This document shows positions 1 to 56,722 of a DNA stretch of 56,722 bases, in pieces (position 1 is the first letter of the stretch; each line of letters begins with the position of its first letter). The position numbers and the translations under genes are program-made. The DNA is from an uncultured Oscillospiraceae bacterium (GTDB lineage: Bacteria > Bacillota > Clostridia > Oscillospirales > Oscillospiraceae): assembly GCA_944385125.1 (NCBI GenBank), contig CALWVZ010000006.1, positions 1 through 56,722 of the forward strand. The letters run 5' to 3'. Below the pieces are notes generated by a model, which was given only the letters and a program-made list of their open reading frames with translations, made no database searches and was not told the origin of the DNA.

Positions 1-546
1 GGATCGCAGACATCTTCAAGCACGACCTTGTCGCCGGGAGTTTTATCCCTCCTGCGGATATTCGCCAACTACGGGATGGCGCCGGGTATCCAATCCTTTG
101 CCGCTGTTGGCATCATTTCTGAGATCGGAGTGGATATGTCCGTGTTCCCCACCTCGAAGCATCTCTGCTCTTGGGCTGGTCTTACGCCACAGAACAACGA
201 AAGTGCTGGAAAGAAGAAAACCACCAGAATCAGCCGGGCCGGTGCTTACATCAAGCCACTGCTTGTTCAGTGTGCCCTCTGTGCCATTCGTACCAAGCAG
301 TTCCCGGAAGTCCGTAATCGCTACCTGGCTCTCAAAAAGCGCCGAGGGCACAAGAAAGCCATTATTGCCATTGCCAGAATGCTCCTTACGGCTATCTACA
401 ATATGCTCAAGAAGAACGAACCGTACAACCCTGAACTCTACCGAAAGGGCGACCGGCCACCTGCACACCGTGAGGTTTCTGTGGAAGAAGCCGTCTTCAT
501 CCTACAACGGCAAGGGTACTTAGTGACTGCTCCACCAGCATCTTAG
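1..546 (+). pseudogene. IS110-family transposase remnant, internally deleted and cut by window edge
   Basis: The C-terminal half of an IS110/IS116/IS902-type transposase is open from about 82 to 546 (residues such as [50 protein letters not shown]), the usual Transposase_20 region. Upstream, a different frame (starting at base 3) reads [20 protein letters not shown], which resembles the end of the N-terminal DEDD-type domain of the same family. The two pieces meet in different frames near 75-82, so about 200 codons of the middle are missing and the junction is frameshifted. The element is therefore a dead copy. Its 5' end lies outside the window. An independent deletion or two overlapping partial copies would look the same. 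Confidence 0.85.
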
Positions 547-569
547 ACTTCAAGCATTTCTTGTTTTTT

Positions 570-592
570 AGCTCGCTTTTAGTGAGCTTGAT
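570..592 (+). terminator. weak hairpin after IS110 remnant
   Basis: A 7-bp stem (AGCTCGC with GTGAGCT, one G-T pair) with a TTTTA loop is followed by TGATTTT on the plus strand. It could end transcription of the transposase. It is weak and carries no U-tract for pyrD on the other strand. Confidence 0.35.
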
Positions 593-624
593 TTTGTGCG
601 CCCTTTTTTGGAATGGTACTTAAA

Positions 625-1548
625 TTACAATGTTTCAACCTTCGCTCCTCCTATTATATCTCTCAATGAACTGATATCGTACTTCTCCATAACTGCGGGC
701 AGCTCTTTTATGATGTCCCGGCAGGCAAAGGGACTTGCCAGGTTGGCGGCCCCCACTTCCACGGCGGTAGCCCCTGCCAGCATCATCTCTATCACGTCCT
801 CGGCCCGGCAAACTCCCCCTACGCCGATGACCGGCACTTTTACCGCCTGGGCCACCTGGTACACCATGCGCAGGGCCACGGGGAAAATTGCCGGGCCGGA
901 AAAGCCGCCGGTGCGGTTTGCCACCACGGGCCGCCGGGTCTTAAGGTCTATGCGCATACCCAGGAGGGTATTTATAAGGCTTATACCGTCGGCCCCCGCC
1001 TCTTCACAGGCCAGGGCAATGGACACGATGTCGGTGACGTTGGGGCTGAGCTTCACTATCACCGGCTTGCGGCACACGGCCTTCACCGCTCTGGTGACCT
1101 CCGCCGCCGCCTCCGGGCAGGTGCCGAAGCTCATGCCGCCGCCGTGGACATTGGGGCAGCTGACGTTCACTTCCAGCCAGCCCACCTGCTCACACTTGTC
1201 CAGCTTCTCGCAGCTGTACACATAATCCTCTACGGAAAAACCGCTGACATTGGCAATAACTTTCTTATGAAAAACCTTGGCCAGTTTCGGCAGCTCCTCC
1301 TCTATGACCTTATCCACTCCGGGATTCTGAAGTCCCACGGAGTTTATAAGGCCGGCGGTACACTCGGCGATTCTGGGAGTGGGGTTTCCGAAGCGGGGCT
1401 CCCTGGTGGTACCCTTGAAGGAAAAGGTGCCCAATACATTTATATCATATATCTGCGCAAATTCATAGCCATATCCGAAAGTTCCGCTGGCGGGAATCAC
1501 GGGATTATCCAGCTCTATTCCGCAGAGGGAGACTCTCATGTCCGCCAT
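625..1548 (-). CDS. pyrD: dihydroorotate dehydrogenase, class 1B catalytic subunit
   Basis: Oxidises dihydroorotate to orotate with FMN in the cytoplasm, passing electrons to NAD+ through PyrK. The 307-residue protein is a TIM-barrel DHODH. NVSCPN places the catalytic base Cys at residue 131, which is the class 1B hallmark (class 1A and class 2 differ in base or partner). GVGGV near the C terminus is the phosphate-binding loop. I chose ATG 1548 because AAGGAGGAG lies 6 nt upstream; a longer in-frame extension to 1587 has no better site. The start overlaps the end of pyrK by 13 nt, suggesting translational coupling of the two subunits. It is the last gene of the pyrC-carB-pyrK-pyrD operon and is followed directly by an IS110 remnant. 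Confidence 0.95.
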   Translation of the reverse strand: MADMRVSLCGIELDNPVIPASGTFGYGYEFAQIYDINVLGTFSFKGTTREPRFGNPTPRIAECTAGLINSVGLQNPGVDKVIEEELPKLAKVFHKKVIANVSGFSVEDYVYSCEKLDKCEQVGWLEVNVSCPNVHGGGMSFGTCPEAAAEVTRAVKAVCRKPVIVKLSPNVTDIVSIALACEEAGADGISLINTLLGMRIDLKTRRPVVANRTGGFSGPAIFPVALRMVYQVAQAVKVPVIGVGGVCRAEDVIEMMLAGATAVEVGAANLASPFACRDIIKELPAVMEKYDISSLRDIIGGAKVETL

Positions 1549-2270
1549 TTTATCTCCTCCTTCACAAGCACCGGGCCCTCCCTGCATATACGCTTTACTC
1601 CATACAGGGTCTCGCAGGAGCAGCCCATGCAGGCTCCAAAGCCGCAGCCCATGCGCTGCTCGAAGCTGAACTGGCCGGAAGTGACGGAGCAGTCGCTGAC
1701 GGCTTTGAACATGGCCTCCGGGCCGCAGGTATAGAAATGGCTGTAGCTGAGGCCTTCCATGGCCTTTGTCACATAGCCCTTTATGCCCAGGCTGCCGTCC
1801 TCGGTGCAGACGCTGACTTCACAGCCCAGGGCCCGGAACTTGTCCACATACACCGCCTGCTCCTTTGAGGCAAAGCCCAGGATGACCCGGACCCTCTTGC
1901 CCTCTTTTATCAGGGTCTTTGCCAGGGAGTAAAGAGGGGTGAAGCCCATGCCGCCGCCAATGAGCAGCGGAGCGTCTCCGGCCAGGGCGGTATCAAAGCC
2001 GTTGCCCAGGCCCGTGAGCACGTCCAGGCTGCCCTCTCTCATCCGGGACAGCAGCTCGGTCCCCCGGCCCTGGATACGGTACACCACGGTGAAGCCGCTT
2101 CCGTCCCAGTCGCAGACGGAGAGGGGGCGGCGGAGAAAGCAGCCCTCCACCTGTATATTCACGAACTGGCCCGGGCGCACTATGGCTCCGGTATCCCCCC
2201 CCAGGCGCAGGGACATGATGTCCTTTGCCAGGGGGAGGTTTTCCACTATTTCAAACTTTCCCTGTTTCAT
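1536..2270 (-). CDS. pyrK: dihydroorotate dehydrogenase electron transfer subunit
   Basis: FAD and 2Fe-2S subunit that carries electrons from PyrD to NAD+. The 244-residue chain shows the ferredoxin-reductase layout: an FAD-binding RRPLSV motif near residue 48, the NAD-binding glycine run LIGGGMGFTPL, and a C-terminal iron-sulfur motif with four cysteines in CGFGACMGC plus a later RIC. The spacing to the last Cys is 11 residues, at the short end for the family. The start sits 8 nt after the carB stop with a GAGGAG ribosome site in the gap. Its presence confirms that PyrD is the heteromeric 1B type. Confidence 0.94.
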   Translation of the reverse strand: MKQGKFEIVENLPLAKDIMSLRLGGDTGAIVRPGQFVNIQVEGCFLRRPLSVCDWDGSGFTVVYRIQGRGTELLSRMREGSLDVLTGLGNGFDTALAGDAPLLIGGGMGFTPLYSLAKTLIKEGKRVRVILGFASKEQAVYVDKFRALGCEVSVCTEDGSLGIKGYVTKAMEGLSYSHFYTCGPEAMFKAVSDCSVTSGQFSFEQRMGCGFGACMGCSCETLYGVKRICREGPVLVKEEIKWRT

Positions 2271-2278
2271 GGCTCTCC

Positions 2279-5200
2279 TCAGGAATCTATGGTGGAGATA
2301 CGAAGGGTGGTCTCCTCCAGCACATCCAGCAGCACTCTCACGGTGTCCAGGGCGGTGAACATGGTGACGTTATTCTCCGTTGCGGCGCTGCGTATCTTGA
2401 AGCCGTCGGTCAGCTGGCCCATGGAGCCCAGGTCCTGGGTGTTGATGACATAGGCGATATGGCCCTGGCGCAGGGACTCCAGTATCTCGTTGCTGCCGTC
2501 CCTTATCTTTTTCAGCACGTGGGTACGGATGCCGTTCTCCTTCAGGAAGCGGGCGGTGCCCTCGGTGGCCTCTATGTTGAAGCCCAGGTCATAGAAGCGG
2601 CGGATAAGGGGCAGCGCCTCTTCCTTGTCCTTGTCGGCCACGGTGGCAAACACGGTGCCGTAGTTCTGCAGGTGGGTACCGGCGGCCTGGAGGGCCTTGT
2701 ACAGGGCCCGGTTCAGCTTGTCGTCATAGCCTATGGCCTCGCCGGTGGACTTCATCTCCGGGGAGAGATAGGCGTCCAGGCCCCGTATCTTATTGAAGGA
2801 GAACACGGGGACCTTCACGTACCAGCGGTCCTTCTCCTTGGGGTAGATATCGAATATGCCCTGCTCCTTCAGGCTCTTGCCCATGATGACTTCGGTGGCG
2901 ATATCCGCCAGGCTGTAGCCGGTGGCCTTGGACAGGAAGGGCACTGTACGGGAGGAACGGGGGTTGACCTCGATGATGTAGACTCTGTCGCTTCTGTCCA
3001 CGATGAACTGGATATTGTACAGGCCGATGATGCCTATGCCCAGGCCCAGCTTCTTGGCGTACTGGAGGACAATGCCCTTCACCTTGTCTGAGATGGAGAA
3101 GGTGGGGTATACGCTTATGGAGTCGCCGCTGTGGATGCCGGTGCGCTCCACCAGCTCCATGATGCCGGGGACGAACACGTCCCTGCCGTCGCAGATGGCG
3201 TCCACCTCTATCTCCTTGCCGATGATGTACTTGTCCACCAGCACGGGCTTGTCCACGTCCACCTCCACGGCGGTCTTCAGGTACTGGCGCAGCTGCTGCT
3301 CGTTTGCAACTATCTGCATGGCCCGGCCTCCCAGCACGAAGCTGGGGCGCACCAGCACGGGATAGCCTATGCTCTCGGCTGCCTTTACGCCGTCCTCTAT
3401 GTTGGTGACGGCCCGGCCCTCAGGCTGGGGGATGTCCAGCTGCTCCAGGATATGCTCGAAGCTGTCCCGGTTCTCGGCCCGCTCTATGGCCTGGCAGTCG
3501 GTGCCGATTATCTTCACCCCCCGCTCCATCAGGGGCTGGGCCAGGTTGATGGCGGTCTGGCCGCCCAGGGAGGCGATGACCCCCTCCGGCTTTTCAAATT
3601 CTATGATGTTCATGACGTCCTCGGGGGTGAGGGGCTCGAAGTAGAGCTTGTCGGCGGTGGTGTAGTCGGTGGAGACGGTCTCCGGGTTATTGTTTATGAT
3701 GATGGCCTCATAGCCGGATTTCTTAATGGTGGTGACGGCGTGGACGGTGGAGTAGTCGAACTCCACGCCCTGGCCTATACGGATGGGGCCGGCGCCCAGC
3801 ACCACTATCTTCTTCCTGTCCTCCAGGCGGGAGGAATTCTCTCTGCTGTAGGAGGAGTAGAAGTAGGGGATATAGGCGTTGGTGTGGCAGGTGTCCACCA
3901 TGGGGTAGCTGGGGAAGAGCTTCATCTCACGGCGCAGCTCGAACACATCCAGCTCCTTCTCCTTCCAGAGACAGGCAATGTATTTGTCGCTGAAGCCCAT
4001 CTTCTTTGCCCGGGTGAGAATATCCCGGTTTCCGGGATTTGCTGCCAGGGTCTTCTCCATGTCCACTATCTTCTTTATGGACTCCAGGAACAGAGGGGTA
4101 ATCATGGTCACTTCATAGAGCTTATCTATGCTCACGCCACGGCGCAGCAGCTCCGCTGCGGCAAAGATACCGTCGTCCCTGAACTGGCCCAGATAGTCCA
4201 AAATGGCCTGGGTCTCCATGGAGTCAAACTTCGCCATGCGGAAGTGGCAGACGCCTATCTCCAGAGAGCGCACGGATTTAAGCAGGCACTCCTCCAGGTT
4301 GGCGCCTATGCCCATGACCTCGCCGGTGGCCTTCATCTGGGTACCCAGCACATTGGGGGCGGTGGCAAACTTGTCAAAGGGGAAGCGGGGCATCTTGGCC
4401 ACCACATAGTCCAGGCTGGGTTCAAAGGCGGCGTTGGTGTTGGCGATGGCAATATCCTCCAGAGCCATGCCCACGGCTATCTTGGCGGTGACCCTGGCTA
4501 TGGGGTAGCCGCTGGCCTTGGAGGCCAGAGCGGAGGAGCGGGAAACTCTGGGGTTGACTTCGATAAGATAGTACTCGCTGGACTTGGGGTTGAGGGCAAA
4601 CTGCACGTTGCAGCCGCCCTCTATCTTCAGGGCCCGGATTATCTTTATTGCGCTGTCGTTGAGCATCTTCAGGTCGTGCTCGTTCAGGCTCATGATGGGG
4701 GCCACCACTATGGAGTCGCCGGTGTGCACGCCCACAGGGTCCACGTTCTCCATGCCGCATATGGTGATGGCGTGGTCCCTGGAGTCCCGCATGACCTCGA
4801 ACTCTATCTCCTTGTAGCCCTTGACGCTCTTTTCGATGAGCACCTGGTGCACGGGAGAGAGCTTGAAGGCGTTGTTGCCGATATCCTCCAGCTCCTCCTC
4901 GTTGTTGGCAAAGCCGCCGCCGGTGCCGCCCAGGGTGAAGGCGGGGCGCAATACCACAGGATAACCTATCTCCCTGGCGGCGGCTCTGGCCTCCTCCAGG
5001 CTGTAGGTTATCTGGGAGGGGATGGTGGGCTCACCTATGGACTGGCACAGCTCCTTGAACAGCTCCCTGTCCTCGGCCTTTTCTATGCTCTCGCTGCTGG
5101 TGCCCAGCAGCTCCACACGGCACTCCTTCAAAACGCCCTTCTTCTCCAGCTGCATGGCCAGGTTCAAGCCGGTCTGGCCGCCTATGCCGGGGACTATGGC

Positions 5201-55010: not shown

Positions 55011-55096
55011 GCCCAGCACCTCCCGTCATCTTCTGCTTTTATCATAACATGCTTTCTCCCACGGCACAAGCGAAATCCGCCTCTCTAACATAAAGC

Positions 55097-55150
55097 CGCC
55101 GCCTTGGCCGCTCTGCGGCCATTATTTTAATTTCAAGAGGCCGCTGGTTC
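55097..55150. repeat. 54-bp block B with inverted tRNA-Pro fragment
   Basis: 52 of 54 bases match block A (56401-56454). Its last 19 bases (55132-55150) equal part of the tRNA-Pro(GGG) gene, from anticodon stem through T stem, but in the opposite orientation to the intact tRNA. Confidence 0.85.
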
Positions 55151-55182
55151 TTGCTGCCGGATATATCTTACTTCAGGTAATA

Positions 55183-55212
55183 AAAAAACAGGAAGCATCA
55201 TTTGATGCTTCC
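55183..55212 (-). terminator. intrinsic terminator on minus strand
   Basis: GGAAGCATCA pairs perfectly with TGATGCTTCC (2-nt loop), followed on the minus strand by TG and seven T. It does not belong to any gene immediately upstream; it ends the cassette. Confidence 0.7.
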
Positions 55213-55252
55213 TCGGTAACAGTATACAACTCCCGGCTCTCGGAAAGGAAAA

Positions 55253-55288
55253 CCAAATCGAAGCCCAGCGCAAGCGGGTTCGATTTGG
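55253..55288. repeat. 36-bp palindromic repeat, copy B
   Basis: Arms CCAAATCGAA and TTCGATTTGG around a GC-rich centre. Identical over 36 bp to 56531-56566. Confidence 0.92.
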
Positions 55289-55334
55289 AGCGGAGGAGCA
55301 AGGGAGCGGGCGGATGACGTCTTTTTTGCCATAG

Positions 55335-55374
55335 GCATAAAAAGACGTCGGAGCAAAGCGGACTTTGCTCCGAC
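55335..55374 (-). terminator. tRNA-type terminator, copy B
   Basis: GTCGGAGCAAAG pairs with CTTTGCTCCGAC, then GACGTCTTTTT on the minus strand. Similar in sequence to the terminator of the intact tRNA-Pro at 56606-56644. Confidence 0.75.
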
Positions 55375-55377
55375 GCA

Positions 55378-55388
55378 TGGTCCGAGTG
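55378..55388 (-). repeat. tRNA-Pro 3' scrap, copy B
   Basis: Eleven bases (CACTCGGACCA on the minus strand) equal the acceptor 3' end of the intact tRNA-Pro, directly followed by a terminator like the one the intact tRNA has. Confidence 0.7.
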
Positions 55389-55540
55389 TCATTAAAGGAT
55401 CTGTGGAAATCCAGTCATATCAATAATCTGTGAGCAGTTGGCAAGGCTTTTATCCTAACTAATATACAAATGGGAGGATACATTACGAAAAGCAAATTCA
55501 AGCTTCACAGCTTACACTGTGTAACTAAAATCGTTATTAA

Positions 55541-56164
55541 CTAATGATACGGATAGAGTGTAGCAGTATGCTTATATCTATTTACCATATTGTCAAAATG
55601 CTTTTGGAAATTCTTAATGACCCGCTGCCCAACTTTGTTATCATCGGTAAAGATGAGAGGTGTATAATCTACGTCAGTCTGTGTTGGTTTGTTTTCGTCA
55701 AAATATACATGGCCCCAAAAAACCAGGCGGTCCCCTAGCAAGGTGTAATAACAATCTGGATCATGATCGTAAGCAATAATGGTCAGCTTCTTAATTCTAC
55801 CTTTTTCCTTAAGCGATTCCCATAAGGAAAGATTTGTGTTAAGAATAGTTATATCCGATTCCTTTTCTTGCGCTTTCTTTCGAACCAAAATGGTAAGTTG
55901 CTTAATTACTATTCTTGGATTTTGCTCTAGAATTGTGTTCAATTTATTTAACAGCTCATGCGAATTAACAGTATACATGCAGATATGTTTTACTTTAGGT
56001 ATTAGGGTTGAAAAAGACTCGTTTGGTTCAAGGAAACGCACATAAGATGTTTCTTTATAGCTTGCTGCTTCGTGCTTATATTTATTTGCTCTAATACTTC
56101 CAATAGTAGCCGCAATAATAGTGCCTGCCAGTCCAATTAGAGCTACAATAATATTTTCAGACAT
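55541..56164 (-). CDS. AT-rich orphan gene, N-terminally membrane-anchored protein
   Basis: 207 residues. Start at 56164 (MSENII) chosen because GAGGAGGAG lies 5 nt before it. Residues about 4-22 form one membrane helix (IIVALIGLAGTIIAATIGS), followed by a soluble domain of about 170 residues with repeated beta/alpha pattern: SFSTLIPKVKHICMY, RIVIKQLTILVRKK, KKLTIIAYDHDPDCYYTLL, DRLVFWGHVYFDE. This faintly resembles phospholipase-D-like folds, but no HKD motif is seen, so no function is claimed. Base composition is far more AT-rich than all neighbours. It is flanked by tRNA-Pro-derived repeats, the mark of a laterally acquired insert. Confidence 0.72.
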   Translation of the reverse strand: MSENIIVALIGLAGTIIAATIGSIRANKYKHEAASYKETSYVRFLEPNESFSTLIPKVKHICMYTVNSHELLNKLNTILEQNPRIVIKQLTILVRKKAQEKESDITILNTNLSLWESLKEKGRIKKLTIIAYDHDPDCYYTLLGDRLVFWGHVYFDENKPTQTDVDYTPLIFTDDNKVGQRVIKNFQKHFDNMVNRYKHTATLYPYH

Positions 56165-56231
56165 TTTCTCCTCCTCTATTTTGTACATCAAGAAAAATTA
56201 GCGCAAGTGGGAACGGAGCATTATCAACTTA

Positions 56232-56259
56232 ATGATAGCAAATAAAAGTCTATTTGCAA
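56232..56259 (-). promoter_or_regulatory. candidate promoter of the orphan gene
   Basis: TTGCAA (56259-56254), spacer 16 bp, TATCAT (56237-56232) on the minus strand, about 70 nt before the start. Confidence 0.5.
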
Positions 56260-56317
56260 ACTTATACTTTGTTTATGCTAAAAGACATACTGTCGTAATA
56301 TATAGTTTTAAAATAGA

Positions 56318-56354
56318 AATACCACAGGTAGATGACTTGCCTACCTGCGGTATT
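56318..56354 (-). terminator. intrinsic terminator after tRNA-Pro fragment A
   Basis: AATACCGCAGGTAG pairs with CTACCTGTGGTATT (14 bp, one G-T), followed by TCTATTTT on the minus strand. It directly follows the partial tRNA at 56355-56386. Confidence 0.85.
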
Positions 56355-56386
56355 TGGTCCGAGTGACTGGATTTGAACCAGCGGCC
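56355..56386 (-). pseudogene. tRNA-Pro(GGG) 3' fragment, copy A
   Basis: 32 bases identical to 56646-56677 of the intact gene, covering the variable loop end, T arm, acceptor 3' strand and CCA. The 5' two thirds are missing. Same strand as the intact tRNA, so this is a direct partial duplication, and it is followed by its own terminator. Confidence 0.85.
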
Positions 56387-56400
56387 GTCGGCGGCGCTTA

Positions 56401-56454
56401 CGCCGCCTTGGCCGCCCTGCGGCCATTATTATAATTTCAAGAGGCCGCTGGTTC
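56401..56454. repeat. 54-bp block A with inverted tRNA-Pro fragment
   Basis: Matches block B (55097-55150) at 52 of 54 bases. The last part (56436-56455) equals 20 bases of the intact tRNA-Pro in the opposite orientation. A GC-rich palindrome precedes it. Confidence 0.85.
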
Positions 56455-56530
56455 ATGTCCCCGGGCTCTTTATCCCTCCGGGCAATAAAAAAGTGTCATT
56501 ATAGAACTTTAGACTTACGGAAAAGAAAAG

Positions 56531-56566
56531 CCAAATCGAAGCCCAGCGCAAGCGGGTTCGATTTGG
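56531..56566. repeat. 36-bp palindromic repeat, copy A
   Basis: Identical to 55253-55288. Purine-rich flanks on both sides are also similar in the two copies. Confidence 0.92.
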
Positions 56567-56605
56567 AGAGGAGGAGCAGCGGCATGAGCGCGCTCTGACT
56601 TTTGC

Positions 56606-56644
56606 AAAAAAAGTCGGAGCAAGCGATATAAAGCTTGCTCCGAC
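56606..56644 (-). terminator. intrinsic terminator of tRNA-Pro
   Basis: GTCGGAGCAAGC pairs perfectly with GCTTGCTCCGAC (12 bp, 8-nt loop), followed by seven T on the minus strand, one nucleotide after the CCA end. Confidence 0.88.
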
Positions 56645-56645
56645 G

Positions 56646-56721
56646 TGGTCCGAGTGACTGGATTTGAACCAGCGGCCTCTTGAACCCCATTCAAGCGCGC
56701 TACCATCTGCGCTACACCCGG
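56646..56721 (-). tRNA. tRNA-Pro, anticodon GGG, CCA encoded
   Basis: Read on the minus strand, all arms fold: acceptor CCGGGTG with CACTCGG (one G-T), D stem GCGC/GCGC, anticodon stem CTTGA/TCAAG with loop ATGGGGT (GGG anticodon, reads CCC and CCU), T stem GCTGG/CCAGT with TTCAAAT loop, discriminator A, then CCA. The gene is 73 nt plus CCA and ends one base from the window edge. It is the parent of the partial copies at 55378-55388, 56355-56386 and the inverted fragments in blocks A and B. Confidence 0.93.
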
Positions 56722-56722
56722 A

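What the first reader, a model, noticed from the sequence alone, without database searches (positions are those of the whole stretch)
55085..56722. tRNA-Pro scarred cassette with four partial tRNA copies around an AT-rich gene
The intact tRNA-Pro(GGG) at 56646-56721 is accompanied by a 32-bp direct copy of its 3' end (56355-56386), an 11-bp direct copy (55378-55388) and two inverted 19-20 bp internal fragments (55132-55150 and 56436-56455). Each direct copy is followed by its own terminator. The 36-bp palindrome and the 54-bp block also occur twice, and AGTGTCATTA lies at 55385-55394 and 56492-56501. This is more layered than the single 3'-end duplication left by most integrases, and no integrase is present. 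It may be a repeat family that captures tRNA ends, or serial integration and decay at the tRNA.
Basis: seen in the sequence. Interest (0 to 1): 0.75.

Follow-up and report, generated by a model that had tools for sequence, protein, structure and literature searches.

The report
Mobile terminator units stacked behind tRNA
Behind a proline tRNA gene of a gut-type bacterium lie three small stacked DNA units of a repeat family that sits right at the ends of many tRNA genes in related bacteria, brings its own stop signal and sometimes carries a gene, which hints at an unknown way for DNA to dock at tRNA genes.

Summary
They are not a local oddity. The hairpin-rich block behind tRNA-Pro(GGG) belongs to a repeat family lying right behind the CCA of 10 of 28 tRNA genes listed, and of tmRNA, in the same genome, and behind many kinds of tRNA in related genomes. 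In one clean filled/empty comparison the unit is 164 bp: it starts right after CCA with its own terminator, ends in a short sequence closing with CCA, and a native terminator follows. I read the window as three stacked units: 291 bp (with a tRNA-Pro-specific forked block), 977 bp carrying an AT-rich orphan gene, and 164 bp. The 11-bp "tRNA copy" at 55378 is the right end of the gene unit: 24 of 26 bases match a unit end in another genome. A close relative, G261, is empty here. The two non-coding units are 94-97% identical to copies in other genomes but 85-87% to the best other copies of their own, pointing to arrival from outside. The recombinase is unknown; large serine recombinases near some right ends are only candidates. 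Nine literature searches found no description.

The parts
56646..56721 (-). intact tRNA-Pro(GGG), the anchor
   Evidence: ARAGORN and Rfam
56355..56645 (-). unit 1 (291 bp): non-coding repeat LE#1 joined to a forked tRNA-Pro block that ends in the 32-bp tRNA 3' end
   Evidence: starts directly after the tRNA CCA and ends in CGGACCA; unit status inferred
56613..56644 (-). hairpin A of LE#1: 12-pair stem plus T run, terminator-like
56492..56506 (-). possible truncated right end of LE#1 (AATGACACT)
   Evidence: weak: second hit of the Pro-type right-end HMM, E=2.9; D10
56355..56454 (-). forked block: inverted tRNA fragment, two GC hairpins, 32-bp direct tRNA 3' end
   Evidence: fold of 56355-56460 z -7.1; same layout in relatives
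55378..56354 (-). unit 2 (977 bp): terminator first, AT-rich gene, tRNA-like right end last
   Evidence: unit status inferred
56317..56355 (-). terminator-like hairpin at the head of unit 2, 16 pairs, its first base being the last A of CCA
55541..56164 (-). orphan gene, 207 aa, N-terminal hydrophobic stretch and ribosome-binding site by eye, GC 36%
   Evidence: no family over cut-off
   Evidence: HMM from 6 right ends of other genomes, E=7.3e-6; 24 of 26 bases as in L157
55214..55377 (-). unit 3 (164 bp): non-coding repeat LE#2, with hairpin 55376-55345 and palindrome 55253-55288; far boundary set by the alignment with G261
55190..55213 (-). native terminator T3, which directly follows the tRNA in relative G261
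55097..55160 (-). older, truncated forked block behind T3, also present in G261

Best explanation
The region is a tandem array of three small mobile units that inserted one behind another at one spot: between the CCA end of tRNA-Pro(GGG) and its native terminator. Shown: the non-coding units belong to a family that sits at tRNA and tmRNA 3' ends in many genomes, starts with its own terminator, in its best-preserved form ends in a sequence closing with CCA, and is present at a given tRNA in one relative and absent in another. Inferred: a site-specific recombinase supplied in trans joins the unit at CCA, using the tRNA end as target and the tRNA-like right end as the matching site. Because each unit carries a terminator and leaves the tRNA intact, insertion costs the host little, and the new unit recreates a target for the next one. 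Non-coding units are the passive form; others carry a passenger gene (here an AT-rich orphan protein).
For: Same genome: 10 of 28 distinct tRNA genes listed have the unit behind CCA, plus tmRNA. Other genomes: 38 of 59 exact hairpin-A hits (57 stretches of named genomes, 2 viral contigs) lie at most 12 nt behind a tRNA 3' end, 15 anticodons, expected fraction 0.0027; 2 of the other 21 follow tmRNA. In 31 of 39 tRNA-adjacent starts exactly one C separates CCA from GTCGGAGC. Clean insertion: of 7 tRNA-Gly(CCC) loci printed, G305 has a 164-bp unit ending GATGTTCCA and then a terminator AAAAAGAAAGACATCC..; L292 and L295 have a terminator of that type directly after CCA, and the other 4 have no unit either. 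Window locus empty in G261. Right-end motif in 25 of 400 family genomes, reversed control 0; a terminator-like hairpin (some being the next unit's) follows in 24 of 29 against 33 of 580 random places. Window right end matches those of other genomes, E=7.3e-6. LE#1 is 97.5% identical over 119 bp to L141 and 96.6% over 118 bp to Pseudoflavonifractor phocaeensis (L121), against 86.8% for the best other own copy; LE#2 94.5% over 127 bp to L212 of another genus, against 85.2%. Hairpin D: 10 of 13 pairs change on both sides, 0 of 500 shuffles reach it.
Against: No recombinase identified. At tRNA-Ser(TGA) G261 carries the unit but the native terminator hairpin is lost, so that case is a replacement, not a clean insertion; LE#1 in the window also seems to join the tail of a lost terminator. 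8 of 39 tRNA-adjacent starts have another spacing or base. Between own genome and G261 several occupied sites are shared (Pro(TGG), Thr(GGT), Val(GAC), Leu(GAG), Gly(CCC), tmRNA), so movement is not frequent. Some partial copies lie away from any tRNA (own contigs C22, C41, C48). The right-end motif is sparse: 25 of 400 genomes, 1 of 10 in the window's genus (the own one). The truncated right end of LE#1 is weak (E=2.9). G261 could have lost the array rather than never had it.
Confidence: 0.7

Rival explanations
1. Remnants of ordinary tyrosine-integrase islands or prophages: repeated integration into tRNA-Pro(GGG), each time displacing the tRNA 3' end, followed by deletion of the interiors.
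For: The forked block with its 32-bp tRNA end looks like an attachment-site remnant; several relatives have, by eye, tyrosine-integrase coding sequence behind this tRNA (L169, L186, L195), and L195/L196 differ by one such block between the tRNA and an integrase remnant, besides a deletion in that remnant. L165, a viral contig, has hairpin A 4 nt behind a tRNA-Leu and a Phage_integrase gene nearby.
Against: No match of one tyrosine integrase and three large serine recombinases in the window. Right ends are not displaced ends of the local tRNA: nearly one sequence is found downstream of Leu, Lys, Gly, Ala, Ser and Arg tRNAs. Units are compact and highly similar between genomes, unlike random deletion products.
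Confidence: 0.2
2. The non-coding block is a conserved tRNA terminator or trailer RNA inherited vertically, not mobile.
For: Strong hairpins, T run, compensatory changes; several sites are occupied in both own genome and G261.
Against: Presence/absence differs between relatives at tRNA-Ser(TGA), tRNA-Gly(CCC) and tRNA-Pro(GGG); the window copies are closer to other genomes than to their own; of the 30 tRNA-Pro(GGG) loci printed (one with only 2 bases of flank) only the window's has the unit.
Confidence: 0.1
3. Integron-like gene-cassette system: tRNA end as the primary site, the tRNA-like right end as the cassette site, with a dedicated recombinase.
For: Units stack (L137, L113, L116, window); genes lie between a tRNA and a right end in L230 (DUF2971), L234 (no family), L241 (not assigned) and L242 (HNH), and KilA-N or Bro-N genes end just before right ends (L229, L236).
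Against: No integron integrase seen (not searched for); attC features not tested; large serine recombinases lie near some right ends but the left boundary of that block is not at a tRNA, and in L231 the recombinase element seems to sit inside a tRNA terminator. In L230 the passenger is on the opposite strand, next to an IS.
Confidence: 0.25
4. Assembly artefact or simple tandem duplication.
For: The contig ends at the tRNA.
Against: The two non-coding units differ from each other and match different foreign copies; units occur inside long contigs of other genomes; three CACTCGGACCA are each followed by a different sequence.
Confidence: 0.03

Closest known systems
tRNA/tmRNA genomic islands as catalogued by Islander (PMC4383910; start of abstract and passages seen)
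   Same: insertion at tRNA and tmRNA genes, intact tRNA kept, tandem arrays, passenger genes
   Different: no integrase found on board, small units, one unit type at many different tRNAs, little more than CCA shared at the junction; [quoted passage not shown]
CIME (att-flanked element without recombination genes; recalled)
   Same: flanked by attachment-like ends, no recombinase
   Different: not shown to derive from a larger element; widespread as a repeat family
MITE and REP/BIME-like bacterial repeats (recalled)
   Same: short, hairpin-rich, non-coding, many copies, non-autonomous
   Different: no terminal inverted repeats seen; placement at tRNA CCA ends; forms with passenger genes
Integron gene cassettes (recalled)
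   Same: stacked small units each closing with a site, varied small passengers
   Different: anchor is a tRNA end; no IntI seen
E. coli tyrT/rtT repeats (recalled; the search returned nothing)
   Same: tandem repeats behind a tRNA that contain copies of its 3' end
   Different: here several unit types, a gene, and spread to many tRNAs and genomes

Membership tests
Islander-type tRNA genomic island | displaced 3' tRNA fragment at the far end | tested here: met
   32-bp copy at 56355-56386 for unit 1; only 11 bp for unit 2
Islander-type tRNA genomic island | tyrosine integrase gene on the island | tested here: not met
   no tblastn match in the window for one tyrosine integrase, three large serine recombinases and a KilA-N protein at E 0.05; none by eye among ORFs of 44-56.7 kb
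MITE | terminal inverted repeats | tested here: not met
   none at the unit ends; start CGTCGGAGC and end GATGTTCCA or CACTCGGACCA are not inverted copies
MITE | target-site duplication | tested here: inconclusive
   CCA stands at both sides of the 164-bp unit, but it may be the unit's own end
Integron cassette | IntI-type integrase in the genome | not tested
   not searched
Integron cassette | attC site with inverted R and L boxes | not tested
   20 right ends aligned but not scored against attC models
REP/BIME repeats | RAYT (Y1) transposase | not tested
   not searched
Large-serine-recombinase element | recombinase gene inside unit boundaries ending at the conserved right end | tested here: inconclusive
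   recombinase genes 2.2-2.9 kb upstream of right ends in L232, L235, L236 (Pfam on L236 only), but left boundary not at a tRNA

The most novel reading that the evidence does not exclude
A previously undescribed, tRNA-anchored cassette system of Oscillospiraceae: a trans-acting recombinase recognises tRNA and tmRNA genes in general (not one isoacceptor) through their 3' end and stacks small units, each with its own terminator and a tRNA-mimicking end, so that every tRNA operon end becomes a site for gene cassettes.
Probability: 0.27. Interest if true: 0.85.

Novelty: new variant of a known kind. Interest (0 to 1): 0.62.

Why it matters
tRNA genes are the classic docking sites of mobile DNA, but known integrases use one or a few tRNAs (recalled) and usually ride on their island (PMC4383910, passages). 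A unit that sits right behind the CCA of at least 15 anticodon types and of tmRNA, precedes or replaces the terminator and stacks into arrays points to an unknown enzyme with general tRNA-end recognition. It would explain partial tRNA copies and small orphan genes behind tRNAs in these bacteria, and the right-end motif gives a handle to look for the enzyme.

Tried and rejected
Window cargo protein: no family over cut-off in Pfam, NCBIfam, PADLOC, PHROGs (Pfam gave only TRI12 at E=0.24), PDB sequences (nothing below E=1), phages, plasmids, viral contigs, 0 of 199 other family genomes; 1 of 393 other genomes in the order search (L289, E=9e-5, 19%), itself unassigned. AlphaFold on the single sequence gave mean pLDDT 49, so no fold search was made.

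Recombinase hunt: the large serine recombinase in L231/L213 ends 236 bp before a right end, but its element seems to sit in a tRNA-Ala terminator. The three consecutive recombinase genes in L232/L235/L236 share homology with each other, and the KilA-N homology of L235 with L229, L237 and L239 ends at the right end, but the left boundary is not at a tRNA. Of the three PF07508 genes of the own genome, the one behind tRNA-Ser(CGA) appears to interrupt a tyrosine integrase gene and is unrelated; the other two have no tRNA in the flanks fetched. The 37.8-kb stretch between tRNA-Lys and a right end in G061 shows no recombinase by eye. In 20 genomes of another genus the right-end motif with up to 2 mismatches occurs in 10, at most 4 per genome.

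A regulatory antisense role of the forked block (its inverted copy can pair with the tRNA) was considered; nothing tests it. Covariation of that block is too small to judge: 1 of 27 pairs changes on both sides in 9 sequences.

Rows set aside: one search kept 41 of 59 hairpin-A hits (18 lacked the GCTCCTCC box or a D hairpin within 160 nt); the alignment uses these 41 plus the window. The forked-block alignment uses 9 of the 10 blocks (the second L187 copy left out). The right-end HMM was built from 20 sequences picked by hand; the Pro-type HMM from 6 of these. tRNA counts collapse identical tRNA sequences.

Literature: searches showed no paper on this repeat family in their listings (36, 41, 76, 77, 104 returned nothing). 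Passages read: PMC4383910, PMC9897764, PMC2267715. Williams 2002 on tDNA sublocations is known to me only from recall and from reference lists.
Full report
The tRNA-Pro(GGG) gene is on the minus strand, so everything to its left is downstream of it. Reading away from the tRNA, the sequence CACTCGGACCA (the last 11 bases of the tRNA) ends at 56646, 56355 and 55378, and each time a different sequence with a terminator-like hairpin follows. GC falls from about 53% to 33-38% over the gene.

The block is a genome-wide repeat. A search of the own genome (G000, 2.0 Mb, 86 contigs, 76% complete) with the last 263 bases gave 23 places; a 127-base query gave 37 whole or partial places at E up to 1. A listing of 3' flanks shows the repeat behind CCA, with 0 to 4 bases between, at 10 of 28 distinct tRNA genes: Thr(GGT), Arg(CCG), Arg(ACG), Pro(CGG), Pro(TGG), Pro(GGG), Val(GAC), Gly(CCC, divergent), Leu(CAG), Leu(GAG). 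The other 18 have other 3' flanks: plain terminators, some with loosely similar hairpins (Val(CAC), Glu(TTC)), or another tRNA of the same cluster. A further copy follows the tmRNA gene. At Leu(GAG) several copies stand in tandem.

It is a family of the wider group. Of 40 relatives (own included) 20 have it: 19 of 25 in the genus, 1 of 15 in other genera of the order. The exact 31-base hairpin A occurs in 57 stretches of named genomes, whose titles name Oscillospiraceae, Flavonifractor, Pseudoflavonifractor, Intestinimonas, Oscillibacter, Lawsonibacter, Dysosmobacter, one Candidatus Onthovicinus, one Clostridiaceae bacterium, or are unplaced, and in 2 viral contigs. Of these 59 hits, 38 lie at most 12 nt behind a tRNA 3' end, covering 15 anticodons, against an expected fraction of 0.0027. 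Of the other 21, two follow tmRNA, seven follow partial tRNA-like 3' ends by eye (L118, L121, L124, L126, L141, L148, L156), and the rest follow other sequence, several of them the right end of a previous unit by HMM or by eye. In 31 of 39 tRNA-adjacent starts the unit begins CGTCGG right after CCA.

Anatomy of the unit. Hairpin D varies in sequence but keeps its pairing: 10 of 13 pairs change on both sides among 42 sequences, with 92.7% of cells paired (shuffled 83.6%, 0 of 500) and a sharp drop when slid. Related sequences can inflate such counts.

Clean insertion. Of 7 tRNA-Gly(CCC) loci printed from the genus of G305, G305 itself has a 164-base unit ending GATGTTCCA and then AAAAAGAAAGACATCC...; in L292 and L295 a terminator of that type, AAAAAGAAGGACATCC..., follows CCA directly; the other four have no unit and other flanks. 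The right-end motif alone occurs in 25 of 400 family genomes from 14 of 106 genera, reversed control none; in the window's genus only the own genome of 10 has it. It is followed by a terminator-like hairpin, in some cases that of the next unit, in 24 of 29 loci against 33 of 580 random places. Downstream of tRNAs it closes short stretches without a long gene (Gly, Ala, Leu, Lys, Ser, Arg) or stretches with genes: DUF2971 beside an IS in L230, a protein without family in L234, an unassigned gene in L241, HNH with HNH repeats in L242. KilA-N, DUF1016 and Bro-N genes end just before right ends in L229 and L236, without a tRNA in the stretch fetched. In L164 a DUF4258 gene and a RHH-like gene (below cut-off) follow hairpin A, but I saw no right end there. 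The own genome has a KilA-N end with this right end on contig C56; its last 98 residues are 99% identical to those of G438, another genus.

The window as an array. Unit 3 (55377-55214, 164 bp) abuts the native terminator T3 (55213-55190). Unit 2 (56354-55378, 977 bp) begins with a 16-pair terminator-like hairpin and ends with CAGATCCTTTAATGACACTCGGACCA: an HMM from six right ends of other genomes finds exactly this place, E=7.3e-6, and 24 of 26 bases equal the right end of L157. Unit 1 (56645-56355, 291 bp) begins with LE#1, has a possible truncated right end (weak, E=2.9), and ends in the forked block with the 32-bp tRNA end. In G261, the closest relative seen in these comparisons (88-89% identical around tRNA-Pro(TGG)), tRNA-Pro(GGG) is followed directly by GC and T3 and then the older inverted block, that is, the 1,432 bases in between are absent. 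LE#1 is 97.5% identical over 119 bp to L141 and 96.6% over 118 bp to a Pseudoflavonifractor phocaeensis copy (L121); LE#2 is 94.5% over 127 bp to L212 (G449, another genus). The best other copies of the own genome reach 86.8% and 85.2%. This points to arrival from outside; the window's own genus is not named, so only the L212 match is certainly from another genus. The order of events is my inference.

The forked block is a second family. An inverted copy of tRNA bases about 40-57, two GC hairpins and a direct 32-base tRNA end form a stem of 12 or more pairs (z -7.1). It lies, whole or in part, behind tRNA-Pro(GGG) in the own genome and 9 others of the 30 loci read, in two of them as tandem copies with 154- and 158-base spacing, and once behind tRNA-Pro(CGG) of another genome (L118). 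L195 and L196 differ by one such block. It may be an attachment-site remnant of a tyrosine-integrase element.

Mechanism. Shown: position, boundaries in one clean case, own terminator, right end, presence/absence. Supported: outside origin. Inferred: site-specific insertion at CCA by a trans-acting enzyme. Against a simple view: at tRNA-Ser(TGA) G261 carries the unit but has lost the native terminator hairpin, LE#1 in the window also joins a terminator remnant, and several occupied sites are shared between own genome and G261, so turnover is slow. Large serine recombinase genes lie 2.2-2.9 kb before right ends in L232, L235 and L236 (Pfam on L236), but their left boundary is not at a tRNA, so they are candidates only.

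Novelty. Nine literature searches gave no description of this family (listed under Tried and rejected); most subscription papers are not in that library. I file it as a new variant of tRNA-targeting mobile DNA and keep the cassette-system reading as the bold case. On rechecking, odds moved by a few hundredths: the best explanation and the bold case down, the vertical-inheritance rival up, because shared sites with G261 and the rarity of right ends in the own genus weigh against frequent movement.

Noticed in passing
window 56664-56722 and contig C68 end (L015 1011-1069): Exact 59-bp overlap between the ends of contigs C6 and C68 inside the tRNA; C68 probably supplies the upstream flank (a rhomboid-like membrane protein gene by eye).
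   Followed up: partly
L287 and L047: At tRNA-Ser(TGA) own genome and G261 share 341 bp at 97% downstream of the tRNA, against 85% over 1.4 kb on the other side; it encodes, by eye, the end of a tyrosine integrase: perhaps a recently shared integrative element.
   Followed up: no
L326 (G000:C29) 1-4436: A large-serine-recombinase gene (503 aa) with neighbours appears to be inserted into a tyrosine integrase gene behind tRNA-Ser(CGA).
   Followed up: partly
L232, L235, L236: Three consecutive large serine recombinase genes upstream of DUF1016 and KilA-N/Bro-N genes that end at the tRNA-like right end.
   Followed up: partly
L320, L231, L316: Another repeat (containing ATGCTCGG... and GCAAAACGC...) recurs near tRNA terminators and can stand between a tRNA and a right end (L320, tRNA-Arg(CCG)).
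   Followed up: no
G061:C12 91462-129221: A 37.8-kb stretch with ABC-transporter and uptake-like genes by eye lies between tRNA-Lys and a right end.
   Followed up: partly
L142 3101-3734: A nucleotidyltransferase/HepT-like pair (toxin-antitoxin-like) lies next to a hairpin-A copy that is not at a tRNA.
   Followed up: no
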